Of a stretch of DNA of 32,368 bases, positions 7,768-29,853 are shown piece by piece. How positions within the stretch are numbered: the first letter of the stretch is position 1; every line of letters begins with the position of its first letter. Origin of the DNA: a virus; the IMG/VR virus record IMGVR_UViG_3300046492_000338, positions 1 through 32,368 of that record. One strand, 5' to 3'. The translations under genes and the position numbers were made by a program. The notes below the pieces were generated by a model. The model had not been told where the DNA came from, did no database searches, and was given only the letters and a program-made list of their open reading frames with translations.

Positions 7768-7778
7768 AGTTGCCTCCT

Positions 7779-8822: not shown

Positions 8823-10915
8823 TCGTTATCTCCCGTCGTGTCCCACGTCGCCACGACAGTCCCGCGGCAGCGAATCCCGCCCTGGCACAGCCGATACGGT
8901 CCGGCGCCGTACGCGGCACGAACCGCGTCCAAGTCGGCGAACTGAGTACCGTCGATCTCCGAGCAGGGCGCGCACCGGTTCGCGTCGTTCACTTCGCTGG
9001 CCGTGTACGTGGCAACCGGAGCGGCCTCCAGCGTCGCCACCCGGCCCAAGTTCGTGGCCCGGTGCAGCGCCCCACCCAGCTGATCGAGCTTCAAACGGTT
9101 CGACAGGCCCCGCAGGAAACTCTTCACCTGGCGTGCCACGCCCGCGCCGTCCGCGCCAGGAGTGAGCAGCCGCAGCGCCTCACGCCCCGCAGTCGACGCC
9201 AGCCCGGACCCGAGGAGTCCAGCCGTCGCCGCAGCGATCCCCACCAGCTCAGACCCGAACACAGCCCGCAGCGACCCGACATCCATCCGGTTCGTCACTG
9301 CCTCGTCCAACTCCGGTGCGTCCACGGCGACGCCCTGCGCCGCCGCCTCATCAACCATCCGGCCAGCCGCGCGCTTCGCCATCCCGCCGAGTGCCTCCCG
9401 CAGGACATCGGCCGCGTGGTCGCTGTCGACGGTGAGGGAGGCAAGGGCTGCGGTGTCGTCATCGTCGACGGCGGTACGGATCTGGTCGCCAAGGGCGTTG
9501 ATCCACCGGTCCTCGATGGGAATCCACCGGTCGAGGAGCTGTGAGAGGGCGTCGTCGTGGTCGGCGCGGACTTGTTCCAGCGTGGTGGCGTTCTGGGTGT
9601 TGAGGAGTTGAGCCACCGCGATGTCCCACTCGGTCCGGGCCGCGGGGAGCGCTGCCAGCGGACGGTGGAGCAGCGCCGCCGGGGCGGGGCCGGCCGGGAC
9701 CGGCGCAGCAGCGGGCGGCGTGAACGCAATGGCGGGGAGGCCGACCGCAGACAGGGTGCCCGCAGGGTCGAACCCGGCCTGCACCAGCGCCGCGGCAGCG
9801 TTCGAGCGGGAGGTCAGTTGGATGGCGTCCTTGTCGACGTCCTCCGGGACCGGGTTGACGTAGTCGAACTCCAGGCCCGCCGCGGTCGGCCCGTACAGCG
9901 GCAGCAGCTGGTTGTTGAGCGCGTCTTTCATCGCTTCGAGGTCGGGGACGATGAGCCAGCGGGCGAACATGCGCTCCCCGGACTCGCCGTTGGCCCGGTT
10001 GACGTCGTCGGTGCTGCCGAGCATCGGTTTCGGGAACCCGAAAGCTTCCCGGATGATCTCGCGGCCGACGTCGCGGAGTTCAACGAACTGCATGTCCCGC
10101 TGGCTGAACTTGCGGTCCTTCCACTGCCCGTGTTCGAGGATGGCGACGCGGTGGGCGCTGGCGACCCCTTTGTGCTGCTCGTTCCACCGGTCGCGGAGCT
10201 CGTTGAACTCGCCGTCGGACAGCCCGTTGGGGACCTCGATGATCCCGCCCGGCTCCGCGCTGTTCAGGAAGAAGTTCCGGTTCCACTCCGCGCTGTAGCG
10301 CACCGCGTCAAGGTCGGTGAGCAACGCCTGCACGGGGCCGATACCGCGGTACGGGTCCGTCGGGTGCGGGGTGCGGATGAAGATGACGTCCTCTTTGCGG
10401 AGCGCCACCTGCTGCCCGTCGGGGCCCGTGTACATGTACCCCGACAGGAACGTCTCCGGGTCCGGGACTGGTGTCATCCGGTCCGGGCGCACCGGCCACA
10501 ACTCCAGAGGAATCGTGGAGCGCTCGTTGTAGCCGATCACCCACCACTGCTCGCCCGTGAGCTGCTTGTGCTGCGCCACAGCCTCCACGAACACCGACTG
10601 CGTGTAGAACGGGTTCGGCTTGTCCCACAGGTCGAGGGCCGCGTGCGAGGTGACCTGAACGCGGTCTTCCTTCTTCCCGGACTTCGCCTTCCGGTACAGC
10701 CCCCACTCGACGCCGGCCTCCGCCTTCGCGGTGCGGTTGACGATGGCGAAGAGGGTGGAGACGGAGCCCATGGCGCCGAGTTCGGCGGTGGTGCCTCGGT
10801 TGGAGCCGAAGAGGCTGTGTCCGTAGGACTGGTGGCGGGAGGCGAAGGGGACGGGGGTGGTGGTGGGGCGGGCGCGCAGAGCGTTGGCGAGGGAGCCGAA
10901 GAGGGTTTTGCCCAC
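8819..10915 (-). CDS. Portal protein fused to a MuF-type minor head domain
   Basis: 698 residues from a GTG with GGAGGGGGC upstream. Residues about 40-400 are an HK97-type portal: FAIVNRTAKAEAGVEWGLYR, PNPFYTQSVFVEA, GEQWWVIGYNE, TPHPTDPYRGIGPV and REAFGFPKP. A Pro/Ala-rich linker around 400-430 leads to a helical region. The last 56 residues (from about 643, NDANRCAPCSEIDGTQF, then CQGGIRCRG) carry the Cys-rich signature of SPP1 gp7/MuF-like minor head proteins. HK97 portals are usually near 400-500 aa, so this is a portal-MuF fusion rather than two genes. Confidence 0.92.
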   Translation of the reverse strand: MGKTLFGSLANALRARPTTTPVPFASRHQSYGHSLFGSNRGTTAELGAMGSVSTLFAIVNRTAKAEAGVEWGLYRKAKSGKKEDRVQVTSHAALDLWDKPNPFYTQSVFVEAVAQHKQLTGEQWWVIGYNERSTIPLELWPVRPDRMTPVPDPETFLSGYMYTGPDGQQVALRKEDVIFIRTPHPTDPYRGIGPVQALLTDLDAVRYSAEWNRNFFLNSAEPGGIIEVPNGLSDGEFNELRDRWNEQHKGVASAHRVAILEHGQWKDRKFSQRDMQFVELRDVGREIIREAFGFPKPMLGSTDDVNRANGESGERMFARWLIVPDLEAMKDALNNQLLPLYGPTAAGLEFDYVNPVPEDVDKDAIQLTSRSNAAAALVQAGFDPAGTLSAVGLPAIAFTPPAAAPVPAGPAPAALLHRPLAALPAARTEWDIAVAQLLNTQNATTLEQVRADHDDALSQLLDRWIPIEDRWINALGDQIRTAVDDDDTAALASLTVDSDHAADVLREALGGMAKRAAGRMVDEAAAQGVAVDAPELDEAVTNRMDVGSLRAVFGSELVGIAAATAGLLGSGLASTAGREALRLLTPGADGAGVARQVKSFLRGLSNRLKLDQLGGALHRATNLGRVATLEAAPVATYTASEVNDANRCAPCSEIDGTQFADLDAVRAAYGAGPYRLCQGGIRCRGTVVATWDTTGDNE

Positions 10916-10932
10916 GTGCCCCCTCCTTCACG

Positions 10933-11109
10933 TCAGTCGCTGTCGAGCACCCATTGCAGGACGCAGGTGAGGACTCCTCCGGAGATGAGACCAACCCCTG
11001 TACCGAAGATATTCCAGCATCCTGCTGTGATGAGTGTAAATCCTCCTGTCAACATGGATGCTGGCCGCAAATCTTTCAGCTTCTTGGGGTTCACTTGAAG
11101 GTTCCTCAT
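10933..11109 (-). CDS. Small membrane protein between terminase and portal genes
   Basis: 58 residues beginning MRNLQVNPKKLKDLRPAS, with a basic N-terminus followed by about 35 hydrophobic residues (SMLTGGFTLITAGCWNIFG, then VGLISGGVLTCVLQWVL), consistent with one or two membrane segments. Its ATG overlaps the terminase stop (TGATG), suggesting coupled translation. A membrane protein here is unusual in a head operon. It could be an envelope-acting or exclusion factor, but no family is recognisable. Confidence 0.65.
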   Translation of the reverse strand: MRNLQVNPKKLKDLRPASMLTGGFTLITAGCWNIFGTGVGLISGGVLTCVLQWVLDSD

Positions 11110-12437
11110 CACAGCCACCTCACACGCGGACGACCCCCGAGATCCCGAGCGGCAACCATGTACCGCATCGCGTCCATCGAGTGATCGTTCTCCTTTACCG
11201 GCGCCTCTTTGAGGCCACCGCTGTTGCCCGGTTTCACCGCCCACACATAGCCCGCGATCTCCTCCGCCCCGCAGGCCGGCAGGGACGCGGACTCCAGTTC
11301 CGGGTCCCGATCGACGAGGGCCCCGCGTGCGATGAGCAGGCGCGGCCGCCCGTCCTCCTGCACCCGCAGTCGGGCCTGCACCGCCTGAATCCCATCGCTG
11401 ACTGTCTTCGTCGCAGGCTTCGTCGGTAGCCCCAAGTGGCGCTCCAGGGTGGCCCGGTCCTCCGCGTCGTGGTCCGCGTAGATCGCGCGTGGGAGCTGCC
11501 CGCGCGGCTGCCCGGACGGGTAGAACAGCAGGTCTTTGATGGTCTTCGCATGGTCCTCGACCAGGCGGCGCGTGTAATAGATCTCGTTGGCTAGGTACAG
11601 GCGGCCGTCCGGGTCCTCCCACCAGTCCTGATACACAAAGGGGTTCGTGAACCCGAAGTCGACCGTTCCCCAGCGGGACCACGCGGCCGTCGGCTTGACC
11701 GCGTCGACCATGTGGATCGCGTCGTCCCACGCCTCGTAGATCTGCCCCTCGGCCGCCGCCCACTTCCCATCGCGGTAGCGCAGACGTCGGACTCCCGTCA
11801 GGGCGTCGAGCTTCTTCATGTAGTCCACGCCGCGCTCAGTGAGCGTGCCATCGGCGTTAACAAGCAGCGGGTTGTCGGAGTGCCGCGAGTAGATCATGCG
11901 CATGATGCCCGCATCGCACCGCTTCTTGATCCAGTGCTGGGGGGCGTCCGGGTTGCAGGCCAAGACGATCTGACGGTAGGTGTCGGCGTTCCCGCGAAGG
12001 CGGGTGATCAGCGTCTCCAGCGCGGTGAGGGTGACCTGCGTGGCCTCGTCGACGTAGATCCGTGAGAACTCCGTCGACAGGAACTTCTCAGGACGGTCAA
12101 GGCCGCCGACCACGATCTCCGATCCGTTGGCGTACTGGTAGGCAGCTGGCTTGCGGGCAGAGCCCCCGAACCAACTGACCACGCCATGGGCAAGGGCGTC
12201 ACGGATGACCTGCTGCTCGAACGTGACGAGCGTCGACCCGGTCAGCGATGCGTGTGTCTGGCGGACGATCAGCGATCGGCAGCCGGGAACCATGAGGCTC
12301 GTGTAGTGGGCTTTCTGAAGCATGGCCAGGCTCTTGCCGGTGCCTGCGGGGCCCGCGATGCAGGCTTCCTGATCGCGGCCGGTCAGAAGTTCCTTCGCGC
12401 CGCCCCTTGGCTCGTACCGCACGACCGTCTCAGTCAC
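11109..12437 (-). CDS. terL: Terminase large subunit
   Basis: 442 residues from a GTG at 12437, seven bases after the small-subunit stop. Longer in-frame starts would run into that gene. The ATPase has Walker A at residues 28-36 (AGPAGTGKS), Walker B at 127-131 (IYVDE) and a coupling-motif region near LACNPD (159-164). The RNase H-like nuclease begins at TVDFGFTN (Asp260), with further acidic positions such as YADHDAEDR and a late ENDHSMDAMRY. It cuts concatemers and drives DNA through the portal. The best-conserved gene in the window. Confidence 0.95.
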   Translation of the reverse strand: MTETVVRYEPRGGAKELLTGRDQEACIAGPAGTGKSLAMLQKAHYTSLMVPGCRSLIVRQTHASLTGSTLVTFEQQVIRDALAHGVVSWFGGSARKPAAYQYANGSEIVVGGLDRPEKFLSTEFSRIYVDEATQVTLTALETLITRLRGNADTYRQIVLACNPDAPQHWIKKRCDAGIMRMIYSRHSDNPLLVNADGTLTERGVDYMKKLDALTGVRRLRYRDGKWAAAEGQIYEAWDDAIHMVDAVKPTAAWSRWGTVDFGFTNPFVYQDWWEDPDGRLYLANEIYYTRRLVEDHAKTIKDLLFYPSGQPRGQLPRAIYADHDAEDRATLERHLGLPTKPATKTVSDGIQAVQARLRVQEDGRPRLLIARGALVDRDPELESASLPACGAEEIAGYVWAVKPGNSGGLKEAPVKENDHSMDAMRYMVAARDLGGRPRVRWL

Positions 12438-12444
12438 GGGCAGC

Positions 12445-13005
12445 TCACGTGAGGTCCGCGGGGTCGACCCCGACGACTTCGTACCGAACGCCACCGGATA
12501 GTGCGACCTTCGCAGGCTGGTCAAGGCCCATGAGCTTGCGGAACGACTCCATCGTGGCGCGCGCTTCACGGATCGCGGCGAGCTTCGGCCCGTTGTCGGT
12601 GAGGGGCTTCTCCATCCCGGTCTCCGGGTCGGCCATGGTGACGACCTTCCCGTGGGACACCATCACGTGTTCGGCTTCCAGCACTTCCAGCGCTGCTTCG
12701 TACAGGGTTTCCAGGCGTTCGACGTGGAGTGTGAGGAGCTTCTCCGCAGGCCCGCGGACGATTTCACGCAGCGCTCCGCGGATGGCCTTACGGGCGACGC
12801 TTTTGTCGTAGTAGCCGAGCTCGTCGGCGATCGCTTGCAGGGTCCAGCCTTCGGCGCGGAGTTCGGCTGCGCGGGCGTCACGTGCTGCGTTTGCGGGGGT
12901 GCGGACGAAGCGGTTGAGGCTGTCGCGGGCGCGCCCGTCACCGGTGGGGTGGCCGGCGGTGGGTTCGGGCTCGGCCGGTACTGGTGGATTGTTACCGGTA
13001 ACCAT
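12445..13005 (-). CDS. terS: Terminase small subunit (DNA-binding)
   Basis: 186 residues from an ATG at 13005. The N-terminal 40 residues are Pro-rich and disordered. Residues about 55-95 form a helix-turn-helix (AELRAEGWTLQAIADELG) followed by a long basic helix, as expected for DNA recognition by a terminase small subunit. The C-terminal half is helical and probably oligomeric, ending with a short tail that could contact the large subunit. There is no Shine-Dalgarno before the ATG; a TACCAT six bases upstream could be a -10 box for a leaderless message. The adjacent large subunit supports the call. Confidence 0.85.
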   Translation of the reverse strand: MVTGNNPPVPAEPEPTAGHPTGDGRARDSLNRFVRTPANAARDARAAELRAEGWTLQAIADELGYYDKSVARKAIRGALREIVRGPAEKLLTLHVERLETLYEAALEVLEAEHVMVSHGKVVTMADPETGMEKPLTDNGPKLAAIREARATMESFRKLMGLDQPAKVALSGGVRYEVVGVDPADLT

Positions 13006-13012
13006 GGTGTGA

Positions 13013-13018
13013 TGGTAG
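13013..13018 (-). promoter_or_regulatory. Candidate -10 box for a leaderless terS transcript
   Basis: On the minus strand TACCAT ends 7 bases before the A of the terS ATG, and no ribosome-binding site is present in the short leader. Leaderless mRNAs are common in actinobacteria. The matching -35 is weak, so this is tentative. Confidence 0.3.
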
Positions 13019-13057
13019 CGAGGGTGTGCAACTGGTGGACGGTGGTGCACAGCAGAG

Positions 13058-13087
13058 GGCCCGCACTCCTGGGCGTGAGTGCGGGCC
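13058..13087 (-). terminator. Strong hairpin upstream of the terminase genes
   Basis: An 11-bp perfect stem (GGCCCGCACTC with GAGTGCGGGCC) and an 8-nt loop lie between the 106-aa gene and terS. On the minus strand it would end transcripts from 13133 onward and insulate the late structural operon. It shares the AAGGCCCGC edge with other terminators at 15800 and 16084. Confidence 0.65.
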
Positions 13088-13132
13088 TTCGGCGTGCGCG
13101 GGGTCAGGCGGCGAGTAGGGCGTGAACTGAGC

Positions 13133-13453
13133 TCACGATGCAGGGTCGTGGCTGGGCTGCAACAGGTGGTCGATCTCCGCAACCAGCCACTGATACTGCG
13201 GTCCGGGTAGTACCAGCTCCTCGCCCGCGCCCTGCGGGTGGCCGGGCGGCCGGATCTCCCACCGCACGCCGTCCTCCGTGGGCCACACGTACAGGCGGTC
13301 ACCCCTTTTCGCCGCGGCCTGCTGCCCGGTCGCCTCGATGGGGATGCGGACCTCGATGTAGTCGCCGGTTGCGGTCGCTGTCCAGCCGAGGCGGGCGAGG
13401 TGGTTGGTGACCCGGGCGGTGAACTCGGGGGCAAACACGGTGAGGTTGGCCAT
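13133..13453 (-). CDS. Hypothetical protein, 106 aa
   Basis: Starts MANLTVFAPEFTARVTNHLAR at 13453. It is a small alpha/beta-looking protein: an N-terminal helix with LARLGWTATATGDYIEVRIP, a basic stretch AAAKRGDRLYVWP, then WEIRPPGHPQGAGEELVLPG and a C-terminal helix. No cofactor or catalytic motif stands out. It lies first before the terminator upstream of the terminase genes. After its stop, another frame encodes PCIVSSVHALLAA and stop, a degenerate copy of a C-terminal motif found in the neighbouring WYL protein. Confidence 0.7.
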   Translation of the reverse strand: MANLTVFAPEFTARVTNHLARLGWTATATGDYIEVRIPIEATGQQAAAKRGDRLYVWPTEDGVRWEIRPPGHPQGAGEELVLPGPQYQWLVAEIDHLLQPSHDPAS

Positions 13454-13517
13454 GCGGGCTCCTAAGCGGCAAGGGCGGGGCGGGCCGCCGGGGTGCGTCG
13501 GCCCTGAGACGTGGCGG

Positions 13518-13577
13518 TCAGGCGGCGAGGGCGTCGGCGAGGAGCTGGACGCGGGTGGTGGCGGGGCAGACGGGGTC
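13518..13577 (-). pseudogene. Possible remnant of a gene end (CPATTRVQLLADALAA frame)
   Basis: After the stop of the 79-aa gene, another frame reads DPVCPATTRVQLLADALAA then TGA. The last 16 residues align with CPIAQRIDLLASALAA, which ends the intact WYL protein at 13825. No start codon or ribosome site precedes it. It is best read as the surviving 3' end of a duplicated or replaced gene, unless a frameshift adds it to the zinc-ribbon protein. Confidence 0.35.
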
Positions 13578-13815
13578 AGTTGGTGCGAGCCGGGCACTTG
13601 TGCGGCAGGCGTGCGAGGACGAAGTAGCGGCGGAATGTCGGGTTCTCGCGGGTGGCGTAGCGGCCGCAGGCTTGGACGTCGCAGAGGTACCACTGGCCGG
13701 TGCGCGCGGACTGCTTCCATGCGAGCTTGTCGTCGCCGCACCGGTTGCAGCGGGCCAGCTTCGTGACCTCGGCGGCGTTGTTCTGCGGTGAGTCGGTGGC
13801 GGTGAAGTGCTCCAT
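13576..13815 (-). CDS. Small zinc-ribbon protein
   Basis: 79 residues. CNRCGDDKLAWKQ (Cys23/26) and CDVQACGRYATR (Cys45/50) form a four-Cys zinc ribbon, and a final HKCPARTN follows. Such ribbons recur in Streptomyces phages and mobile elements and may bind nucleic acid or other proteins. It follows the WYL gene by ten bases, so it is probably co-transcribed. In another frame directly after its stop is a peptide CPATTRVQLLADALAA, like the end of the WYL protein. Confidence 0.7.
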   Translation of the reverse strand: MEHFTATDSPQNNAAEVTKLARCNRCGDDKLAWKQSARTGQWYLCDVQACGRYATRENPTFRRYFVLARLPHKCPARTN

Positions 13816-13824
13816 GACGGTTCC

Positions 13825-14214
13825 TTACGCGGCGAGGGCTGAGGCCAGCAGGTCGATGCGCTGAGCGATGGGGCAGTCGACGGGGTAGAGGACGGTGACC
13901 GTCGCGAGGCCGTGGGCGGGGCGCGCCTTCGGCTCGTCGGCGGCCGGCCGGTCGACGGTGTAGGCGGTGCGGTGGGTGGTGTAGGAGACGAGGCGGTCCA
14001 GCCGGAAGGAGCGTGCTTCCTGGCTGTCGCGGTCCATGCCCTTCAGGAGGATGTCGCCGGCGGCGCTGACGACGATGTCGTACAGCTCGACGGTGCGGAT
14101 CGTTTCCGACCCGTCGGCCTTGGTGTAGGTGATGGTGACGGGGTGGCGCTTGTCGAGGGCTTTGATGAGGCGGGTGAGGGTCTGGGTGGTGGTCTCGTTC
14201 GCCGTGTGCCTCAT
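13825..14214 (-). CDS. WYL-domain protein
   Basis: 129 residues from an ATG at 14214 with AAGGGGGA upstream. Residues about 15-87 fit a WYL fold: PVTITYTKADGSETIRTVEL, then GDILLKGMDRDSQEARSFRLDRL, with the conserved FRLDR at 70-74. WYL domains bind ligands or nucleic acid and often regulate anti-phage or DNA-damage genes, usually next to an HTH domain. Here the domain stands alone, with a short tail ending CPIAQRIDLLASALAA. It is transcribed divergently from a ribbon-helix-helix gene across a region rich in operator-like repeats, so the two may form a small regulatory circuit. Confidence 0.75.
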   Translation of the reverse strand: MRHTANETTTQTLTRLIKALDKRHPVTITYTKADGSETIRTVELYDIVVSAAGDILLKGMDRDSQEARSFRLDRLVSYTTHRTAYTVDRPAADEPKARPAHGLATVTVLYPVDCPIAQRIDLLASALAA

Positions 14215-14237
14215 CGGGTCCCCCTTGCTCGTTTCCT

Positions 14238-14305
14238 TGTAGCCACACAGTATCGCTAACCGTGTGGCTACACAAGCTGTTCGGGTAAGAAACTCTGTGG
14301 CAACA
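14238..14305. promoter_or_regulatory. Divergent control region with three TGTRGCYACA-type operators
   Basis: Three copies of one decamer occur in 68 bp: TGTAGCCACA (14238-14247), TGTGGCTACA (14263-14272) and TGTGGCAACA (14296-14305, touching the ATG of the plus-strand gene). The first two are exact reverse complements and extend to an 11-bp inverted repeat; each is itself nearly palindromic. A GATACT -10-like box for the minus-strand WYL gene lies between them. The layout fits repressor sites overlapping divergent promoters. The first plus-strand gene, a ribbon-helix-helix protein, is the obvious candidate binder. Confidence 0.65.
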
Positions 14306-14562
14306 TGGATCGCATGCCAGATGCCACCGACCACACCTTCGTCACCCGCTTCCGCATTCCCCGCCGACTGTGGGACGCCTACGGAACAGCCGCTGCTCGC
14401 GAGGGCGTTGACCGGAGCGCCGACCTCGTCGACCACGTCCGCGGCTTCATCAAGGAACACGGCAACGAGCAGGAGCGCGCCGAGCTCGCGGCCGCCGAGC
14501 AGGAGTTGGCCGAGCGGCGGGCGCGCAAGGGCGGCCGGCCGAAGAAGGAGCCGAGCGCATGA
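14305..14562 (+). CDS. Ribbon-helix-helix DNA-binding protein (candidate autorepressor)
   Basis: 85 residues. FVTRFRIPRRLWDAYGTAAA followed by EGVDRSADLVDHVRGFIKEHG is a typical ribbon-helix-helix: a short strand with alternating basic residues, then two helices. A charged coiled-coil segment (QERAELAAAEQELAERRAR) and a basic GGRPKKE tail, like an AT-hook, follow. It heads four plus-strand genes linked by ATGA overlaps and faces the divergent WYL gene across repeated operators. Autoregulation through those sites is inferred. The start may also be the ATG three codons later. Confidence 0.75.
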   Translation: MDRMPDATDHTFVTRFRIPRRLWDAYGTAAAREGVDRSADLVDHVRGFIKEHGNEQERAELAAAEQELAERRARKGGRPKKEPSA

Positions 14563-14846
14563 GCGACCGCCCGGAGCCCATCACACCGGAAGAGCAGATC
14601 GACAACCTCAAGCAGCGCGTGCAGCAGCTGGAAGACACCGTCCACTACCTGTCCAGCACGCTCGCCATACACGGGATCCTCAACGAGACCGAGGCGTCCG
14701 TGGCGAAGAAGATGCGTCGAGACGGGCAAGAGATCCTCGCGGGAGAGCAGCGCCGCCTTCGCTGGAGCTTCCGCATCCGTGAAGCGAACAAGGAGCGCTA
14801 CCTCAGCGCGGGTCCGGTGCGTCCGGGCGAGGAGCCGACCACATGA
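14559..14846 (+). CDS. Small coiled-coil protein
   Basis: 95 residues, starting MSDRPEPITPEEQIDNLKQR, joined by an ATGA overlap to the repressor gene. Residues about 10-40 (EEQIDNLKQRVQQLEDTVHY) form a clear heptad coiled coil; the rest is basic and helical (EASVAKKMRRDG). No enzyme motif is visible. Overlap on both sides shows it is an integral operon member, perhaps a multimerising partner, but the function is unknown. Confidence 0.65.
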   Translation: MSDRPEPITPEEQIDNLKQRVQQLEDTVHYLSSTLAIHGILNETEASVAKKMRRDGQEILAGEQRRLRWSFRIREANKERYLSAGPVRPGEEPTT

Positions 14847-15079
14847 GCGAGCGGCAAGGAACGCACTTCTTCTTCATGTCGTTCCTCAACCCGGTTGGGA
14901 ACGGCATGTTCAAAACTTTTCACCGATCTGGCACCTTCACACCGTCGCAAGGATCAACCCGGACAGACATGTTCGACAGTCTTCTCAGCACGGTGCAGCA
15001 ACAGAGCCCTGAGCTGGAAGGTGCAGTGGTGATGTCTTTCGACATCCAGCCGAACCGCATCGAACCGCCCACCACATGA
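14843..15079 (+). CDS. Small conserved phage protein with a Ser/Thr/Phe-rich core
   Basis: 78 residues. FFFMSFLNPVGNGMFKTFHR, then SGTFTPSQGSTRTDMFDSLL, resembles a family of small Streptomyces phage proteins that pair a beta hairpin carrying a SGTFTP-like element with a short amphipathic helix. It overlaps both neighbours by ATGA. It has no signal peptide, and the single hydrophobic stretch is too short for a certain membrane span. Role unknown. Confidence 0.6.
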   Translation: MSERQGTHFFFMSFLNPVGNGMFKTFHRSGTFTPSQGSTRTDMFDSLLSTVQQQSPELEGAVVMSFDIQPNRIEPPTT

Positions 15080-15318
15080 GCGAGACGATCCGCCGCCGCA
15101 GCCTCCCCGACAGCCTCCGATGGCTCGCCGACAAACTCGACTCGGGGACTCTCTCTGAAGCCGAGCAGGCCGGTGTCGCCGTGACGCTGCGCATGCTCGC
15201 CGACGAGATCAACCTGCCAGCCCCGCCGTGCAACTGCGGTGCGCCGCAGGGCGGCGACGAAGGAGACGCAGACACGCGCCGCCTCTGGCAGCATTCACGG
15301 TCATGCCCTCAGGGCTGA
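15076..15318 (+). CDS. Small helical protein with Cys-rich end
   Basis: 80 residues, starting MSETIRRRSLPDSLRWLADK. Two helices (SLPDSLRWLADKLDSG and SEAEQAGVAVTLRMLADEIN) precede a Cys/Gly segment (APPCNCGAPQGGDEGD) and a final WQHSRSCPQG. The two CxC/C positions could bind metal. It is the last gene of the overlapping four-gene operon and is followed by a structured intergenic region with hairpins. Function unknown. Confidence 0.6.
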   Translation: MSETIRRRSLPDSLRWLADKLDSGTLSEAEQAGVAVTLRMLADEINLPAPPCNCGAPQGGDEGDADTRRLWQHSRSCPQG

Positions 15319-15383
15319 CCCACCGCATGACGAAGGCCCCGCCCGAACCCTGCACGGACCGCCTGTCCAGCCGGTAGCCTGCC

Positions 15384-15407
15384 GTCGACACTCCTTTTGG
15401 TGTCGGC
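15384..15407 (+). other. Small stem-loop in the structured intergenic region
   Basis: A short CGACAC/GTGTCG stem closes a U-rich loop (TCCTTTTG). Its GTGTCGGC side could also pair with GTGCCGAC inside the next hairpin. That allows two alternative folds upstream of the strong hairpin and terminator. This part of the 238-bp gap contains no convincing gene. Confidence 0.3.
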
Positions 15408-15422
15408 CTTCCATCCGGAAGA

Positions 15423-15457
15423 GTGTCCTCCCCCGTGCCGACCTGTGGGGAGGACAC
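15423..15457 (+). other. Perfect 11-bp hairpin in the gap after the plus-strand operon
   Basis: GTGTCCTCCCC pairs with GGGGAGGACAC around a 13-nt loop. It is too strong to ignore and lies just before a second terminator-like hairpin. It may be part of a tandem terminator or a stable small RNA. Confidence 0.5.
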
Positions 15458-15464
15458 AACAACA

Positions 15465-15491
15465 GCCCCGCCCGGACACCCGGAGCGGGGC
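15465..15491 (+). terminator. Terminator for the plus-strand operon
   Basis: GCCCCGC pairs with GCGGGGC, and the inner CCGG elements can extend the stem. It follows the four overlapping genes and precedes the next plus-strand gene. Confidence 0.55.
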
Positions 15492-15556
15492 CGCTTCACG
15501 TCACGACTCCGTCACACGCCTTCACGCACCGCACACGCCACGCCACAATCACGCGC

Positions 15557-15790
15557 ATGTCAGACACCACGGCCGCCCGCAGCTGGCGCCCCACCCGCAT
15601 GCAGAAAACCATCGCCGCCGTCGTCCTCCTCATCGTCTGGACGATGATGGCCAACTCCTGGGCAGACAAGGGCTGCACCCTGCCCCAGGGGTATTCGTTC
15701 GTCATCAGCCACGGCGGCACACCGGATCACGACCAGGGGTGTGAGGACGAGCCGGGCGGCCCGGAGTACACGGACCAGTACTACAGATGA
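15557..15790 (+). CDS. Small single-span membrane protein
   Basis: 77 residues from an ATG at 15557. The basic N-terminus (RSWRPTRMQK) is followed by a hydrophobic segment of about 20 residues (TIAAVVLLIVWTMMANSWA), then a polar part with two Cys, an acidic stretch (DHDQGCEDEPGGPEYTDQYY) and a tyrosine end. The charge pattern puts the tail outside, with possible secretion by signal-anchor. The spacer holds no clear Shine-Dalgarno; CACAAT nine bases before the ATG could be the -10 of a leaderless message. Confidence 0.6.
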   Translation: MSDTTAARSWRPTRMQKTIAAVVLLIVWTMMANSWADKGCTLPQGYSFVISHGGTPDHDQGCEDEPGGPEYTDQYYR

Positions 15791-15799
15791 CCACGCGAA

Positions 15800-15833
15800 G
15801 GCCCCGCCACGAGGGGGGATTCGCGGCGGGGCC
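15800..15833. terminator. Bidirectional-looking terminator hairpin
   Basis: GGCCCCGCC pairs with GGCGGGGCC, 9 bp, around a 16-nt loop. It lies between the convergent plus-strand membrane protein gene and the minus-strand 59-aa gene, so it could serve both. Its left edge GCGAAGGCCCCGCC is shared with the 16084 hairpin. Confidence 0.65.
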
Positions 15834-15882
15834 AGGGTGCCGGGCGCTACCCGGCGTGCAGCCTCCAGTGTGGCAGGCGCGG

Positions 15883-16062
15883 TCAGTCGTCGTCCTCCGC
15901 GAGCGCAATCTCAACCTGCTTGATCTTCCCGCTCGTCGACAGCTCCGCACGGATCGGGTTGTCCCGCGGCACGCCGGCCTTCCGGGCTGCGTCGACGAAC
16001 GCGGCGAGCTCGTCGAGCGTCATGTCCTTGTCTTCCCCGGTGAACTTCAGCGCGGCAGGCAT
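15883..16062 (-). CDS. Small acidic protein, 59 aa
   Basis: Begins MPAALKFTGEDKDMTLDELA at an ATG in 16062. An upstream GTG at 16080 is less likely because it abuts the preceding hairpin. One helix (TLDELAAFVDAARKAGVP) is followed by a beta hairpin (IRAELSTSGKIKQVEIAL) and an AEDDD end. Such small proteins of 55-65 aa with this pattern are widespread as Streptomyces phage hypotheticals. It stands alone between two terminators, so it may have its own promoter or be read through. Confidence 0.6.
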   Translation of the reverse strand: MPAALKFTGEDKDMTLDELAAFVDAARKAGVPRDNPIRAELSTSGKIKQVEIALAEDDD

Positions 16063-16083
16063 GAGCTCAGGATGACGCACGAA

Positions 16084-16116
16084 GGCCCCGCCGCGGGAGG
16101 GGTTCGCGGCGGGGCC
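16084..16116. terminator. Terminator, 12-bp perfect stem
   Basis: GGCCCCGCCGCG pairs with CGCGGCGGGGCC around a 9-nt loop, in the spacer between the 56-aa and 59-aa minus-strand genes. It ends the 20082-16136 minus-strand cassette. Confidence 0.7.
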
Positions 16117-16135
16117 CGGACGAGGTGGGGCAGCG

Positions 16136-16306
16136 TCACGCGTGTGGAAGCTCCAGCTCCTCGAACTCCGCGCGGACGTCAGCCGGGTCCATCCGGCCCT
16201 CCGCCAGTTCGTAGATCAGTCCCACGGCATGCCACACGTCGCCGTCGGTCGCGTCGCGCAGTGCAGACGCGATGGTCTTGATCAGTGCGAGGCGTTCGGT
16301 CTCCAT
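16136..16306 (-). CDS. Small helical acidic protein, 56 aa
   Basis: Begins METERLALIKTIASALRDAT with GAGGAGCC upstream of the ATG. Almost all helical: TERLALIKTIASALRD, then GDVWHAVGLIYELAEGRM and an acidic end (DVRAEFEELELPHA). It follows the 221-aa gene by ten bases and is the last gene before the terminator. No family recognised; a small partner protein is likely. Confidence 0.6.
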   Translation of the reverse strand: METERLALIKTIASALRDATDGDVWHAVGLIYELAEGRMDPADVRAEFEELELPHA

Positions 16307-16316
16307 CGTGGGCTCC

Positions 16317-16982
16317 TCAGTCGCGGACTTGGTGGTGTCGAATCGAGTCGGCGGGGTCGTGCACGATGGCCCCGGCCTGCCCAATGTGCTCTACACGCAA
16401 CCCCTTCTCTGGGGTTGGCGCCGAGGCGTTGTTGTTGTCGTTGTTGGCGGGCTGACCTGCACCAACGACACCCCCCGGGGTCGATCGGGGAGTGGGGAGA
16501 GCGTCGCCCTTCACACCCGTGGATGAGCCCCTGCCCTGCATGCGTACGGCCTCCACCTGAACGCCGCACGCGTCGAGCGCCTCACGCACCCGCTCGGGCG
16601 TCGTGCCCAAGTCGTGGGCGAGGACGGCGATGTGCGCGTGCGGCGTACCCACGCGGGCGAGGGACTCGCACAGCTCGTGGAACGTCGGGACGCGCCACGT
16701 CTCGGCGGCACCAGCCACCGTCTCATCGGCCTCCGGCTCGGGCTCACTGGCCTCGTCCTCGCCGCGTCGGCCGATCCAGCCACGGGCTTTCTCCCAGCCG
16801 CGGCACGCCATGATCCCGGCCACGAAATACGCGGTCTCTGGAAGAACGGCGACGATCCCCCACATCGCCAGCAGGCCGACAGTGAGCAGCACGATCTTCG
16901 CCGTGCGCTCGCTCATCCCGGCCGACTCCCCCGGCTCTTCGAGGTCGTCGGCCTCCACCTCCGGCTCCTCCGCAGCGCTCAT
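16317..16982 (-). CDS. Mobile-element-type protein with membrane segment and GRGSSTGVKG motif
   Basis: 221 residues from an ATG overlapping the previous stop (ATGA). It has an acidic N-terminus and a hydrophobic span at about 28-60. Residues about 98-147 form a helical domain with GTPHAHIAVLAHDLG, an HTH-like element and VREALDACGVQVEAVRM. Then comes GRGSSTGVKGD (150-160), a Pro-rich part, an Asn-rich run and RVEHIGQAGAIVHDPAD near the end. I associate the GRGSSTGVKG signature with proteins near DUF2637 genes in Streptomyces integrative elements. Function unknown; the context is transfer or replication functions of plasmids. Confidence 0.65.
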   Translation of the reverse strand: MSAAEEPEVEADDLEEPGESAGMSERTAKIVLLTVGLLAMWGIVAVLPETAYFVAGIMACRGWEKARGWIGRRGEDEASEPEPEADETVAGAAETWRVPTFHELCESLARVGTPHAHIAVLAHDLGTTPERVREALDACGVQVEAVRMQGRGSSTGVKGDALPTPRSTPGGVVGAGQPANNDNNNASAPTPEKGLRVEHIGQAGAIVHDPADSIRHHQVRD

Positions 16983-17485
16983 CCGAACGCGCCCGTGAAC
17001 CCGGATCCCAGCATGTTCGCCGCACTGCCAAGCGGCACCGCGGCGACCCCCGCCACGCCGCCGGACAGGGCCAGGCAAATCCCGGAGAAGGCGCCCGCGA
17101 TCAACTTTCCGTTCGGCACCTTGGGCGCCCACTTGATCAGGGCAATGAACACGAGCGTGAACAGGAACACGATCACGAACCCGCCGTCGGTGAGCGCGAC
17201 CGGGTTCCCGCGGGTCACGTCGCGGTCGTTGCCGCCGACGCCCCAGACGAGGCCGAGGTATCCGGCGGCGTTCGCAGCCCAGATGACGGCCCAGGTGACG
17301 ATGCCGAGTGCAGATGCTGCGCCGAACGTGGCGAGCGCGGCAAGCAGCCCATAGATGTGGGACAGGACGAACGGGACGAGGGCGGTCCACTGGCGCTTCT
17401 CCTTGAACCACCAGCGGATGAGGTACATGAGGATGATGCCGACGCCGACGGCGACACCACCCAGGCTGATCATCGTGTACGGCAT
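16979..17485 (-). CDS. Polytopic membrane protein (about 5 segments)
   Basis: 168 residues, starting MPYTMISLGGVAVG at 17485. Hydrophobic spans occur at about 5-25, 40-60, 60-85, 105-125 and 135-165, separated by short charged loops (RWWFKEKRQW, GNDRDVTRGN, KWAPKVPNGK). It lies between a 54-aa membrane protein gene and the GRGSSTGVKG gene, with overlaps or one-base gaps, so they form one operon with the DUF2637 gene. In Streptomyces plasmids and AICEs, clusters of small membrane proteins (Spd) act in intramycelial spread; membership is inferred from context. Confidence 0.65.
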   Translation of the reverse strand: MPYTMISLGGVAVGVGIILMYLIRWWFKEKRQWTALVPFVLSHIYGLLAALATFGAASALGIVTWAVIWAANAAGYLGLVWGVGGNDRDVTRGNPVALTDGGFVIVFLFTLVFIALIKWAPKVPNGKLIAGAFSGICLALSGGVAGVAAVPLGSAANMLGSGFTGAFG

Positions 17486-17486
17486 T

Positions 17487-17651
17487 TCAGTGGCTCCAGA
17501 TCGTGGCGACGTACGCGGTAGGCAGGGCGAGGAGGACGACGGTGCAGGCGGCCGGCCACAGGTAGAGGCCGGGGGCGCGGCGGGGCGCAATGCGGTGGAG
17601 GCCGATCGCGGCGAGGAGCGCAGCCAGCGGGCAGAGGACGGTGAGGATCAT
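17487..17651 (-). CDS. Small membrane protein, 54 aa
   Basis: Begins MILTVLCPLAALLAAIG at an ATG overlapping the DUF2637 stop (ATGA). Two hydrophobic segments (residues about 2-18 and 32-50) flank a basic loop RIAPRRAPG, so a hairpin in the membrane is likely. The next gene starts one base after its stop. It is a short operon member typical of Spd-like clusters, and of unknown function. Confidence 0.6.
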   Translation of the reverse strand: MILTVLCPLAALLAAIGLHRIAPRRAPGLYLWPAACTVVLLALPTAYVATIWSH

Positions 17652-18778
17652 GGGTAGAACCCCGTCCCGTCGCTGAGCCGCCCGTGCGCAGCCTTGAGCC
17701 GACGGCCGGCGGTGGCCGGGCTCACGCCGAGGAGTTGAGCCGCGGTGTCCTTCGTGAGCCGCTCCCCGTCCCTGAGCCGGGACGCGAGGGTGACGATCTG
17801 CTGCTCGATGCGGTCGCCTTCGGGCTCAGGGTCCGGCTCACTCGGCTCAGGGCGGCTCACGAGGGTGGGCTCAGCCGGGCTCAAGACGGGCTCACGTGAG
17901 ACGTGCTGGTCAACGGGCTGGGTGGGCGGCGGAGTCGAGGGCGGGGCAGGCTCGGGCGCGGCGACGATGAGCGCGGTCTGCACAGTCGTCTCAAAGCCCG
18001 GCTCACGCTCGGGCTCACGGTCTGAGCCGGGCTCAGGCTCACGGATCACCGGCTCAGCCGGGGGCAGTGCAGGCTGAGCCGGGGCGTGCTCGATGTCGAG
18101 GACACCTGAGACCGGGGCCAGGGCCCGCCCGTAGCGGGTCAGGCGCAGCGCCATGACAGCCGACACCGGAGCCTTGCGGCGCCAGGCGCGGCCGTACCTG
18201 GCGCGCAGTCGGGCCCGCTCGACGAGCCGGGACTGCTCCAGCTTGATCACTTGGTCGTAGGAGCGCAGCTCCCACAGCTTCATCCGGCGCCACATCCGGA
18301 ACGTGGAGATCGGATCGAGGAACCAGCGCGCCATGCGGACGGAGTCCATGTGGCGTCCGGCCGTGATGTCGGCGGTCCGTCCGATCGCGTGGCGGGCTGC
18401 CTCGACGACAACGACGAACAGGACCGGGATGACGGCGTGCATGCCGGTGCCGATGGGGTCGGGCCAGGCGGCTGCGGCGTTGAACGCGATCGTCGCTGTG
18501 GTGAGGAGCCATGCGGTGTGGCGGAGCATGGCGAGCGGCATGAGCAGCCACGTGAGGAGGAGGTCGAGGGCGAGCAGGACGAGGATTCCGGCGTCGATGC
18601 CGATGGGGAAGGCGTGCGCGAAGGCGCCGAAGCCTTTGACCTTGGCGAGCTTGGCGACCGCGGCGTAGGAGCCGACGAAGCCGATCGCCGCGATCAGGGT
18701 CGCTCCGGTGGCGACGGCGATGATGAGTCGGCGCTGCAAGGTCGTGAGCTTGGGGCGGTCGCCGTTGGGCGTCTTCAC
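17648..18778 (-). CDS. DUF2637 / SpdB-like membrane protein with C-terminal HTH
   Basis: 376 residues from a GTG with GGAG upstream. The N-terminal 135 residues have four hydrophobic segments (about 17-40, 57-84, 88-104, 113-130) with the pattern SYAAVAKLAKVKGF, FAHAFPIGIDAGILV and RHTAWLLTTATIAFNAAAAW, which I recognise as DUF2637 (SpdB-type) from Streptomyces plasmids and AICEs. A basic cytosolic region follows, then a long Glu/Pro-rich linker and a final HTH (AAQLLGVSPATAGRRLKAAHG). Family members help plasmid spread in mycelium. The 3' part contains an extraordinary TGAGCC array described separately. Confidence 0.75.
   Translation of the reverse strand: MKTPNGDRPKLTTLQRRLIIAVATGATLIAAIGFVGSYAAVAKLAKVKGFGAFAHAFPIGIDAGILVLLALDLLLTWLLMPLAMLRHTAWLLTTATIAFNAAAAWPDPIGTGMHAVIPVLFVVVVEAARHAIGRTADITAGRHMDSVRMARWFLDPISTFRMWRRMKLWELRSYDQVIKLEQSRLVERARLRARYGRAWRRKAPVSAVMALRLTRYGRALAPVSGVLDIEHAPAQPALPPAEPVIREPEPGSDREPEREPGFETTVQTALIVAAPEPAPPSTPPPTQPVDQHVSREPVLSPAEPTLVSRPEPSEPDPEPEGDRIEQQIVTLASRLRDGERLTKDTAAQLLGVSPATAGRRLKAAHGRLSDGTGFYP
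17674..18080. repeat. Cluster of 20 TGAGCC/GGCTCA hexamers inside the DUF2637 gene
   Basis: Twenty copies in 407 bp: 13 as GGCTCA and 7 as TGAGCC on the plus strand, for example at 17674, 17695, 17719, 17736, 17755, 17773, 17823, 17835, 17844, 17854, 17868, 17878, 17889, 18000, 18012, 18023, 18030, 18036, 18051 and 18075. They fall in all three codon phases, so Glu-Pro repeats explain only part. Codons before GAG end in T unusually often (CGT, CCT, GCT, AGT). A simple base-composition estimate predicts well under one in this length. A protein-binding array is the likeliest reading. Confidence 0.7.
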
Positions 18779-18815
18779 GAGGGTCTCCGGGTGGCGAGGA
18801 GAGGGGCGGTGCGGG

Positions 18816-19154
18816 TTAGCGCTGTGCGCACTTCGCTTCGACGAGGACGGCGGCTCTGTCCCAGTCGACGGATTCGTTGCCGGCGCCGATGCGCATCTGC
18901 TCGGCCGCCCATGCGGTGCCGAACATGGCGATGCCGCCGCACATGGCGTTCTTGTCGGCTTCGGTCTGCTGCGCCCACGAGAGGTCGACGACGGTTTGCG
19001 TCATGTCGTCGGCCGTGGGGGTGGCGTCGGTGGTTTCGATGACGGTGGTGGTCGCGGGGTCGTCGCTGCTGTCACTGCTGCCTGCGGATGTGCAGGCGGT
19101 GAGGGCGAACACGGCGGCGGCGAGTATGACGGTGAGGGCGCGGCGAGTGTTCAT
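18816..19154 (-). CDS. Lipoprotein
   Basis: 112 residues. MNTRRALTVILAAAVFALTAC is a classic lipoprotein signal: basic N-region, hydrophobic core and lipobox LTAC, with Cys21 as the modified residue. A Ser/Asp/Thr-rich spacer follows, then a small domain with two further Cys (NAMCGGIAMF and VEAKCAQR), possibly disulphide-linked. It should be anchored on the outer face of the host membrane. Such lipoproteins in mobile elements may affect entry exclusion, but that is inference. Confidence 0.75.
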   Translation of the reverse strand: MNTRRALTVILAAAVFALTACTSAGSSDSSDDPATTTVIETTDATPTADDMTQTVVDLSWAQQTEADKNAMCGGIAMFGTAWAAEQMRIGAGNESVDWDRAAVLVEAKCAQR

Positions 19155-19178
19155 GAACTCTGGTCTCCAGGAGATGGG

Positions 19179-19224
19179 GCCGCGCCCCGCGGCCGTGGGG
19201 GAGATGGCTGACGCGGGGCGCGGC
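19179..19224 (-). terminator. Terminator, 12-bp stem
   Basis: GCCGCGCCCCGC pairs perfectly with GCGGGGCGCGGC around a 22-nt loop, between the 26-aa peptide gene and the lipoprotein gene. It would separate the small-protein run (20082-19238) from the lipoprotein/DUF2637 operon. Confidence 0.65.
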
Positions 19225-19237
19225 GGTCTGGGGTGGG

Positions 19238-19318
19238 TCAGCTGGTGCCGTGGTAGATCGCGAAGGCGAGGGCCGCGAAGGATGCGGCGATACCGAGGGC
19301 GTAGAGGAAGCGCTCCAT
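19238..19318 (-). CDS. 26-residue membrane peptide
   Basis: MERFLYALGIAASFAALAFA followed by IYHGTS: a single hydrophobic segment after a short charged start. The ATG overlaps the previous stop (TGATG) and the gene ends before the terminator, so it sits in a tightly packed operon. Its size hides it from most gene finders. Confidence 0.5.
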   Translation of the reverse strand: MERFLYALGIAASFAALAFAIYHGTS

Positions 19319-19521
19319 CAGCGGCCCCTCCTCGTCCGTCGGCCGGTCTCGCGGTCGCGGTCGGCGTCTTCCCACGCCTGGCCTTGACGGGCGGTCCGGG
19401 TGACGTTCTTGCGGTAGTTCTGCCGGCGTTCCCGGGCGGCGGTGTCGCTCGCGGACTCGCGTCCGGGGCGGGCGGCGGCGCGTTCGTGGTCGTTGCCGAG
19501 GAGGCGATCGAACAGGCCCAT
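19318..19521 (-). CDS. Small basic protein, 67 aa
   Basis: MGLFDRLLGNDHERAAARPG with GGGAG upstream. After a short hydrophobic start (MGLFDRLLG) it is rich in Arg, Asp and Glu with almost no hydrophobic core (RERRQNYRKNVTRTARQGQA), ending RRTRRGR. Probably disordered and nucleic-acid-binding or membrane-attached at its N-terminus. It overlaps both neighbours by TGATG. Confidence 0.6.
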   Translation of the reverse strand: MGLFDRLLGNDHERAAARPGRESASDTAARERRQNYRKNVTRTARQGQAWEDADRDRETGRRTRRGR

Positions 19522-19682
19522 CAGATGCTCCCGTCCTGCTCGTCGTCGGACGCGTCGAGTTGGGCGTCGAGGAGAGCGGGTTCGATGGACGCGGTGCCTT
19601 GGCCGCGGTAGTCGCCGCGCTCGATGGCCGCGTACACGGCTTCGCTGCCGGCGTTCATGCGGTCCTGGAACGTCTCGCCCAT
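19521..19682 (-). CDS. Small acidic protein, 53 aa
   Basis: Begins MGETFQDRMNAGSEAVYAAI. Residues about 4-25 form a helix; the rest is acidic and includes RGDYRGQGTASIEPALLDAQ and SDDEQDGSI. Translation is coupled to both neighbours through TGATG overlaps. No family recognised. Confidence 0.55.
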   Translation of the reverse strand: MGETFQDRMNAGSEAVYAAIERGDYRGQGTASIEPALLDAQLDASDDEQDGSI

Positions 19683-19831
19683 CAGTGGCGACCCTTCGCG
19701 TCTTGCTGCGCCATGGTCTGGCGGACGTCGGCGCTGGCCTGATAGTCGGCGCGGCAGTTCTCGATGGTCGCGGGGACTGCGAGGATCTCGTTCGGCTGCG
19801 GGGTGAGGTCCCGCTCCTGCTGCTCGCTCAT
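19682..19831 (-). CDS. Small protein, 49 aa
   Basis: Begins MSEQQERDLTPQPNEILAVP at an ATG that overlaps the stop of the 84-aa gene (ATGA). It has one central segment (ILAVPATIENCRADYQASAD) and an RQTMAQQDAKGRH end. A start further upstream is possible but would overlap the 84-aa gene deeply. Unknown role. Confidence 0.5.
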   Translation of the reverse strand: MSEQQERDLTPQPNEILAVPATIENCRADYQASADVRQTMAQQDAKGRH

Positions 19832-20082
19832 GCGGTCACCGCCGGGCGGGGCAGGGCGCGGCACTTCTCCGCGTGGCCTTGGGCGAGTTCGTTGGCGCGG
19901 CGCTCGTTCCACCAGAGGCCGGGGGTGTCACCGTTGCCGCAGCCGGTGCAGCGCGTGCGGGTGTAGTCGCCGCCGCCGGTGAGGTCGACGGTGGCGCCTG
20001 CGACGGTGAGGTAGCGGGCGATGACTCCGTCGGGCCAAGGTGCGGGGCTGGGTTGTTGGGGCTGCTGATCGGTACGCTCCAC
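19828..20082 (-). CDS. Small zinc-binding-like protein, 84 aa
   Basis: Begins MERTDQQPQQPSPAPWPDGV from a GTG. The core DGVIARYLTVAGATVDLTGG, then RTRCTGCGN with further Trp, Glu and HAEKCRALPRP, gives a likely Cys/His metal site (CTGC and H-C). Proteins of this pattern are familiar from Streptomyces integrative elements and plasmids. It is the first gene of the minus-strand small-protein run, downstream of a hairpin leader and a strongly palindromic control region. Confidence 0.6.
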   Translation of the reverse strand: MERTDQQPQQPSPAPWPDGVIARYLTVAGATVDLTGGGDYTRTRCTGCGNGDTPGLWWNERRANELAQGHAEKCRALPRPAVTA

Positions 20083-29542: not shown

Positions 29543-29553
29543 GAGCGGTCTCC

Positions 29554-29853
29554 TCAGAAGAGCGGTTGCGTCGGGCACTTGTGCGTTGTGAGGTGCTGGT
29601 GGGGGCAGTCGGGTGGGTGTCGGCTGCTGGTCCAGCGGAGGCGTAGGGCCCGGTGCGGTAGGCGGGGCAGGCACCAGACGAGGTCGTTCGCTGTCTGGTC
29701 TTGTGCTGCCTGCGGGTAGGGGAGGCGGTCCTCGGGTGGGTGGAGGGTGACGGTCGCTTTGATGGCGGCGATGTCTCCGACCCACTGGCTGAGGAGGGGG
29801 TGGCCGCACGCGGGACAGCGGGAGTCGGCGCCGCCCCGCGCGCGGCCCGCCAT
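29554..29853 (-). CDS. Small Cys/His-rich protein, 99 aa
   Basis: Starts MAGRARGGADSRCPACGHPL at an ATG overlapping the DUF2303 stop (TGATG). CPACGH at the start and CPHQHLTTHKC near the end could form one zinc site. The middle is polar with WCLPRLPHRALRLRW. Placed directly before the helicase gene, it may assist replication; no homologous fold recognised. Confidence 0.6.
   Translation of the reverse strand: MAGRARGGADSRCPACGHPLLSQWVGDIAAIKATVTLHPPEDRLPYPQAAQDQTANDLVWCLPRLPHRALRLRWTSSRHPPDCPHQHLTTHKCPTQPLF

What the first reader, a model, noticed from the sequence alone, without database searches (positions are those of the whole stretch)
17674..18080. Dense array of 20 TGAGCC/GGCTCA hexamers hidden in a DUF2637 coding sequence
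Seen: 20 copies in 407 bp in both orientations and all three codon phases; a by-eye scan found only a handful in the rest of the window. Base composition predicts about 0.3 in this length. In the Glu-Pro linker the codon before GAG usually ends in T (CGT, CCT, GCT, AGT), against the G/C preference elsewhere, so the DNA hexamer itself appears selected. Known: Streptomyces TraB/FtsK-like transfer proteins load on clustered short repeats (clt/TRS), and centromere-like arrays occur near segregation genes. Inference: the array may be a transfer, partition or regulatory site, perhaps read by this protein's own HTH tail.
Basis: partly seen in the sequence, partly recalled or inferred. Interest (0 to 1): 0.8.

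Follow-up and report, generated by a model that had tools for sequence, protein, structure and literature searches.

The report
Membrane protein gene carries own address
A phage gene for a membrane protein with a DNA-reading tail has twenty copies of one short DNA word hidden inside its own coding sequence; related genes with the same tail have the word too and those with another tail do not, which suggests that the gene carries both a DNA anchor and the address the anchor reads.

Summary
In detail: 20 TGAGCC/GGCTCA hexamers lie in 17674-18080, against 15 in the rest of the 32-kb phage window. A codon-preserving shuffle gives 2.9 on average, at most 11 in 20,000, so the DNA word itself is selected. 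The array fills the linker- and HTH-coding part of a DUF2637 membrane-protein gene. All 23 distinct genes found with this C-terminal HTH carry 15-32 copies; the 131 without it carry 0-3. Eight of the 23, on plasmids, have a different N-terminal domain. Some relatives with other C-termini have arrays of other words; across 780 gene pairs word similarity follows the C-terminus, not the N-terminus. In one relative 92% DNA identity stops two bases before the first word and resumes after the gene: array, linker and HTH are exchanged as one cassette. Best reading: the protein's own HTH reads the array and docks the element's DNA to the membrane. Own-HTH binding is strongly inferred; docking and its use are unproven. 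No TraB/FtsK gene turned up in ten TGAGCC phage records, so clt/TRS is not supported there.

The parts
17648..18778 (-). DUF2637 membrane-protein gene, 376 aa, GTG start
   Evidence: PF10935 E=1.6e-36 over residues 21-175; phrog_29003 E=1.1e-85; AF2 gives long helices in residues 13-136 at low confidence
17674..18080 (.). array of 20 TGAGCC/GGCTCA words, next base G or C in about nine of ten words of the family, then often G
17822..18112 (-). Glu/Pro-rich linker (about residues 223-319), predicted without structure, holds 14 of the 20 words
   Evidence: pLDDT below 50 over residues 223-319; word positions
17672..17821 (-). C-terminal HTH domain (about residues 320-369), holds the other 6 words
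   Evidence: sub-threshold Pfam HTH hits; AF2 of the domain alone, 42 of 65 residues at pLDDT 90 or more, three helices; best structural match the DeoR DNA-binding domain, Z 5.8, rmsd 2.7, 55 aligned
17622..18081 (-). exchangeable cassette: the stretch without nucleotide match between L001 (identical protein) and L012; its edge is one base from the first word
   Evidence: L001 8013-8697 is 92% identical to L012, nothing for 8698-9157, 84% from 9158; converted to window coordinates
18254..18718 (-). DUF2637 membrane domain, free of words
17487..17651 (-). 54-aa hydrophobic protein, next gene downstream, overlaps the DUF2637 stop
   Evidence: found beside some TGAGCC relatives (e.g. L002, L006, L008, L110) and beside relatives with another C-terminus (L009, L116), not beside all
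16979..17485 (-). 168-aa hydrophobic protein, next gene but one
   Evidence: phrog_16379 E=7e-16; 95% identical in L012, which has another cassette

Best explanation
A self-addressed membrane anchor. The protein sits in the membrane through its DUF2637 domain and carries a DNA-reading HTH at the end of a long linker. The HTH reads TGAGCC (better followed by G or C and G), and 15-32 copies of this word are written into the linker and HTH codons of its own gene, the only TGAGCC array of the window. Many anchor molecules can thus grip one spot of the element's DNA and hold it at the membrane. Reader and site are exchanged together as one cassette, so a phage or plasmid can change its address without losing the match. 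Shown: selection on the DNA word, co-variation of word and HTH, cassette exchange, single location, nearly word-free promoter side. Inferred: binding by the own HTH (about 0.85), membrane docking (about 0.55). Open: what docking is for; candidates are segregation, movement across hyphal cross-walls, or membrane-bound phage replication.
For: Codon shuffle: 2.9 expected, max 11 of 20,000, 20 seen. 23 of 23 distinct genes with this HTH have 15-32 words; 131 distinct genes without it have 0-3, 77 of them none. In 22 of these genes 446 words lie after bp 480 of the gene, 7 before, 1 in 5,500 bp upstream and 4 in 10,655 bp downstream (one word of L180 straddles the cut). 8 of 8 fetched plasmid genes with another N-terminal domain (20-22% aligned identity for the two measured) but this HTH have 17-22 words; the 2 fetched genes with that N-terminal domain and another C-terminus have 0. 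Word similarity over 780 pairs of 40 genes: 0.03 for N-identity of 0.7 or more with C-identity under 0.3 (61 pairs); 0.75 for N-identity under 0.3 with C-identity of 0.5 or more (77 pairs). Synonymous codons in the HTH region are kept in 84% of comparisons inside words and 71% outside. Between L001 and 12 diverged relatives only 6-15 of the 20 words lie at the same place, yet counts stay at 15-32. Cassette edges. Of the 131 genes with other C-termini 11 reach z 7.3 for another word, e.g. CACCCG in phage VWB, CAGCCG, GCGAAC, CCGAAG.
Against: No binding, localisation or phenotype was measured. The C-terminal fold is a common HTH and names no function. AF2 confidence for the membrane part is low. 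Most DUF2637 genes with other C-termini have no clear array: 23 of 131 reach z 6, and of the 79 genes from the genome collection only 2, one of them the phage-type L022; so an array is not needed for every DUF2637 protein. Those near parA/parB genes on plasmids (L169, L170, L174) have none. 8 of 22 records have a tyrosine integrase over the cut-off, which makes plasmid-style segregation less necessary for them. The pairs are not independent, and most of the high-C-identity pairs belong to the TGAGCC family.
Confidence: 0.6

Rival explanations
1. clt/TRS-type loading site for an FtsK-like translocase (TraB or host FtsK).
For: Clusters of short repeats, in pWTY27 partly inside the tra gene, are the TraB/TraA sites of Streptomyces plasmids (passages of PMC3583192; introduction of PMC4170104). 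On plasmid CP108822 the gene lies four genes upstream of a TraB-like ATPase, and pSLE1 and NZ_CP109510 have relatives of that ATPase. Two other C-terminal types of the family resemble FtsK gamma weakly (L126 E=1.9e-4, L128 E=0.013, both under the cut-off).
Against: No FtsK/SpoIIIE domain over the cut-off in 22 records, 10 TGAGCC phages among them (this model also misses the TraB-like protein of CP108822); so that protein itself and NF041214 were searched too: no match in those 10 phages. The word follows the HTH of the membrane protein. The TraB-like protein of L163 has a different C-terminal HTH. The window's own HTH did not hit FtsK gamma.
Confidence: 0.1
2. Operator array for autoregulation: the protein binds its own gene and blocks its transcription.
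For: The sites lie in the protein's own gene.
Against: 1 word in 5,500 bp of upstream DNA of 22 genes; 15-32 intragenic sites are more than a repressor is expected to need, and a membrane anchor is odd for a repressor (inference).
Confidence: 0.12
3. Replication origin with iterons inside a gene, as in phage lambda O (recalled).
For: Many short repeats in both orientations.
Against: No AT-rich dip at the array (GC 0.70-0.72). The window has a second, weaker in-gene word array in its DnaB/AAA-type replication gene, 13 GGGGGA in 27810-28085, and a distant relative of that gene has an array of its own (L184): that is the better origin candidate.
Confidence: 0.06
4. By-product of a Glu-Pro repeat: tandem duplication and codon habit made the hexamers.
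For: 10 of the 20 words are in the one class that spells x-Glu-Pro; one weak tandem repeat of 2.2 copies at 17995-18062.
Against: Synonymous shuffle and five strand/phase classes, six words in the HTH codons, word turnover with count kept, same word with another N-terminal domain and a different linker. For EP- or DP-rich relatives such as L015-L017 this explanation is not excluded.
Confidence: 0.02

Closest known systems
SpdA2/sps of Streptomyces plasmid pIJ101 (PMC4170104, parts 1-4 of 6 read)
   Same: A plasmid DNA-binding protein whose target lies in its own coding sequence; synonymous removal of the sites lowered plasmid retention to 79% after three sporulation cycles (100% for the parent) without affecting transfer.
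clt/TRS sites of TraB/TraA (pWTY27, passages of PMC3583192; pSVH1 as told in PMC4170104 and PMC3583192)
   Same: Clusters of short repeats read by a membrane protein, for TraB through its C-terminal winged HTH; in pWTY27 16 bp of the site lie inside traA.
   Different: TraB is a translocase; the DUF2637 protein shows no ATPase domain in Pfam, and no TraB was found in the TGAGCC phages.
AlpA/alpS/AlpC of Corynebacterium prophage CGP3 (PMC4446434, passages)
   Same: A phage DNA-binding adaptor binds repeats on the phage DNA; phage DNA is found mostly at the membrane and efficient replication needs the system.
   Different: Sites lie upstream of the operon and the partner is an actin-like filament, not the same protein's membrane domain.
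phi29 p16.7, a membrane DNA-binding protein that organises phage replication (recalled)
   Same: Membrane segment plus DNA-binding domain in one phage protein.
   Different: No self-encoded word array known to me (recalled, not searched).

Membership tests
DUF2637 (PF10935) | match to the family profile | tested here: met
   E=1.6e-36, 126 bits against a cut-off of 22.8
clt/TRS of TraB | cluster of short repeats | tested here: met
clt/TRS of TraB | TraB encoded by the element | tested here: not met
   for the phages: FtsK_SpoIIIE over the cut-off in 0 of 22 records, one match under it (G018); TraB-like protein of CP108822 and NF041214 in 0 of 12 phage records, 3 of 3 plasmids. Records may be fragments. 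For the plasmids a TraB-like gene is present
clt/TRS of TraB | site acts in cis in transfer | not testable with these tools
   needs mating experiments
ParABS partition | ParA ATPase encoded by the element | tested here: not met
   AAA_31 in 4 of 22 records, in none of the 10 TGAGCC phages among them
ParABS partition | dyad-symmetric parS | tested here: not met
   TGAGCC is asymmetric, orientations mixed, neighbours mostly 6-24 bp apart
SpdA/sps | 12-bp palindrome, 1-3 copies | tested here: not met
FtsK gamma HTH | match to PF09397 | tested here: inconclusive
   no hit for the window's HTH; sub-threshold hits for the L126- and L128-type domains
replication origin with iterons | AT-rich unwinding region beside the repeats | tested here: not met
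   GC 0.70-0.72 around the array in 1-kb windows

The most novel reading that the evidence does not exclude
A family of swappable address cassettes in Streptomyces phages and plasmids: membrane anchors whose C-terminal reader and a private word array are encoded in the same stretch of DNA, with half a dozen or more different words. The cassette defines identity groups (which DNA is docked, spread along the hypha or replicated at the membrane) and may cause incompatibility or exclusion between elements that share a word. Because the HTH is made last and next to its own sites, an anchor may capture its own gene in cis while it is being inserted in the membrane.
Probability: 0.35. Interest if true: 0.9.

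Novelty: new variant of a known kind. Interest (0 to 1): 0.75.

Why it matters
If right, a protein family of unknown function that matches 320 plasmid records, 310 of them Streptomyces (at least two match through the HTH alone), and many phages gets a mechanism with a direct test: swap the cassette and the address should change. It would be a one-gene anchor-plus-site system, and the pairs of HTH and word that evolution has already tried give a data set for reading HTH specificity.

Tried and rejected
Chance and codon habit: rejected. TraB/FtsK loading in the phages: no motor found. The first of these searches used a Pfam model that also misses the TraB-like protein of CP108822, so two more were run. 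Partition by ParA in the TGAGCC phages: no ParA found; pSLE1, which carries the array, is reported to have its own ParA and ParB (passages of PMC4487206), so the array is probably not its only stability system. Promoter operator: upstream DNA nearly free of words. Origin: no AT-rich dip, better candidate elsewhere. A KOPS-like polarity (recalled): orientations are mixed and outside the array the word is at background density.

What led nowhere or weakened the case: structure of the whole protein (mean pLDDT 51); search of solved structures with the HTH profile (two hits, E 0.78 and 0.93); Foldseek gave no match under E 0.001 and VIA-align no Z of 8 or more (FtsK gamma is absent from the rows shown, which excludes nothing). 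Megablast of window 1-20000 (of 32,368) found no phage; the HTH alone found nothing among phages. The C-terminal type of L021, L094, L169 and L174 shows no shared word (last group). Threshold: z 6 was reached at least once by 100 held-out shuffles in 65 of 134 genes, z 7.3 in none; these shuffles counted words with 4 or more copies only, the genes' z had no such floor, so weak arrays (L021, L028, L172 and the like) are uncertain. The 80 genome-collection loci are the best 80 of 584.

Rows dropped: L013, L014 and L018 (no stop codon in the held DNA, or a fragment) were not given; there 7 of 159 loci had no stop in the held DNA and 18 of 152 genes were exact duplicates. One search counted 22 of the 34 loci with the HTH; the rest are overlapping loci of the same contigs, an identical gene (L023) or truncated genes (L004, L018). 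Of the 10 plasmid records with the HTH 8 were fetched. Literature: DUF2637 occurs in 1 held paper, a genome report (listing only); the listings showed nothing on in-gene arrays of this protein; most subscription journals are not held and the pZL12 paper itself was not seen. PMC12260392 was seen as outline and abstract.

Full report
What was checked. The window is an IMG/VR virus record of 32,368 bp with portal, capsid and terminase genes. It holds 35 TGAGCC/GGCTCA, 20 of them in 17674-18080. No other 407-bp stretch holds more than two, and no other hexamer of the window is as clustered. The array lies wholly inside gene 17648-18778 on the minus strand, in the part that codes for a Glu/Pro linker and a C-terminal HTH; the part that codes for the DUF2637 membrane domain has none. 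Shuffling synonymous codons within the gene 20,000 times gave a mean of 2.9 and a maximum of 11. The words use both strands and all three codon phases, so the protein sequence alone cannot be the cause.

Relatives. Three searches gave 159 loci (several are overlapping pieces of the same contigs; one search kept the best 80 of 584), and public records gave further ones. Of 152 complete genes given to, 134 were distinct; each was tested against its own synonymous shuffles. With 20 more genes of plasmid records there are 154 distinct genes, of which 46 reach z 6 or more. By source: 30 of 52 IMG/VR genes, 14 of 23 phage or plasmid genes, 2 of 79 genes of the genome collection, one of them the phage-type L022. 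Held-out shuffles never reached z 7.3.

Word and reader vary together. All 23 distinct genes with the window's HTH (motif ATAGRRL near the C-terminus) have 15-32 TGAGCC; the 131 without it have 0-3, 77 of them none. Of these 131, 23 reach z 6 and 11 reach z 7.3 for another word: CAGCCG/CGGCTGC with the GIGQRRAPRIL type, CGCATC/TGCGCA with the IGQ.RAQRI type, CCGAAG with TTAYDRL, GCGAAC with TTAYQRL, CACCCG in phage VWB and others. Weaker cases such as CGGACA (L009, L012, L116), CGAACA (L010, L121) and TGAGGC (L136) are under that line, and for EP- or DP-rich linkers such as L015-L017 a repeat origin is not excluded. The reverse case also exists: a hydrophobic N-terminal domain that has no Pfam or NCBIfam name and is 20-22% identical to the window's where aligned (L163, L164) carries the same HTH on ten plasmid records of 85-92 kb. 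Eight were fetched and all eight have 17-22 words; two genes with that N-terminal domain but another C-terminus have none. One of the eight is pSLE1 of S. leeuwenhoekii, described as homologous and syntenic to pZL12, with phage-particle genes and its own ParA and ParB (passages of PMC4487206); I call the others pSLE1-type by size and this gene only. Over 780 pairs of 40 genes less than 90% identical, word similarity correlates with C-terminal identity (Spearman 0.58) and hardly with N-terminal identity (0.10). The pairs are not independent, so no p-value is given.

Cassette exchange. L001 (identical protein) and L012 share 92% of their DNA up to L001 position 8697, nothing from 8698 to 9157, and 84% again from 9158. 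The first word of L001 starts at 8699 (counted from 0 there) and the gene ends at 9131. The matches of L009 and L116 end within three bases of the same point. The two small hydrophobic genes downstream are found beside different cassettes: both in L009 and L116, the 168-aa one in L012. So the unit exchanged is linker, array and HTH.

DNA-level upkeep. In the HTH region, where the protein is conserved, synonymous codons are identical in 84% of comparisons when they touch a word and in 71% when they do not (13 genes). Between L001 and 12 diverged relatives 6-15 of the 20 words sit at the same place, yet the number per gene is kept. The base after the word is G or C in about nine of ten cases. 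Upstream DNA of 22 genes has one word in 5,500 bp.

Mechanism. The simplest account is that the HTH reads the word in its own gene. The fold of the HTH is well predicted and resembles ordinary DNA-binding domains such as DeoR. As the N-terminal domain is hydrophobic in both protein kinds, binding would hold the element's DNA at the membrane. I put binding at about 0.85 and docking at about 0.55. What docking serves is open. For phages, prophage CGP3 (passages of PMC4446434) shows phage DNA at the membrane and a DNA-binding adaptor needed for efficient replication. Movement across hyphal cross-walls would suit both kinds of element, but no result here bears on it directly.

What it is not. No FtsK/SpoIIIE domain over the cut-off was found in 22 records. 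Since that model also misses the TraB-like protein of plasmid CP108822, this protein and the NCBIfam TraB model were searched too: no match in 11 virus records and VWB, a match in 3 of 3 plasmids. A TraB loading site is therefore unlikely for the phages and open for the plasmids. ParA was found in 4 of 22 records, none of them a TGAGCC phage. The array has no AT-rich neighbour, and a second in-gene array in the replication gene is a better origin candidate.

Novelty. A membrane anchor with 15-32 private sites that is exchanged as a cassette with its sites is not described in what the searches listed; the library lacks most subscription journals. I therefore file it as a new variant of a known kind.

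Noticed in passing
window 27810-28085: A second, weaker word array inside a coding sequence: 13 GGGGGA/TCCCCC (longer core ACCTCCCC) on both strands in the 3' part of the DnaB/AAA-type replication gene 27635-29809; synonymous shuffle mean 4.5, max 12 of 5,000. Possibly in-gene iterons of the origin.
   Followed up: partly
L184, open frame of 632 aa on its minus strand: A distant relative of that replication gene has its own array, CGTTCC 15 copies against 3.0 expected.
   Followed up: partly
L116, DUF2637 gene from 6001: A stretch resembling a GIY-YIG/T5orf172-type domain (recalled motif, not searched) sits inside the linker of the DUF2637 protein (sequence).
   Followed up: no
L021, L169, L170, L174: On these plasmids the DUF2637 gene lies within a few kb of parA or parA/parB genes, without a clear word array except a weak GTATCCA in L021.
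   Followed up: no
L181, gene 2459-3751: A gene with the second N-terminal domain and another C-terminus has 20 CCGTCA against 8.3 expected, in five strand/phase classes.
   Followed up: no
window 18816-19154: A 112-aa protein with a lipoprotein-like start lies directly upstream of the DUF2637 gene; among the loci held it was found only beside the closest relatives (L001, L002, L003, L011 and overlapping loci).
   Followed up: no
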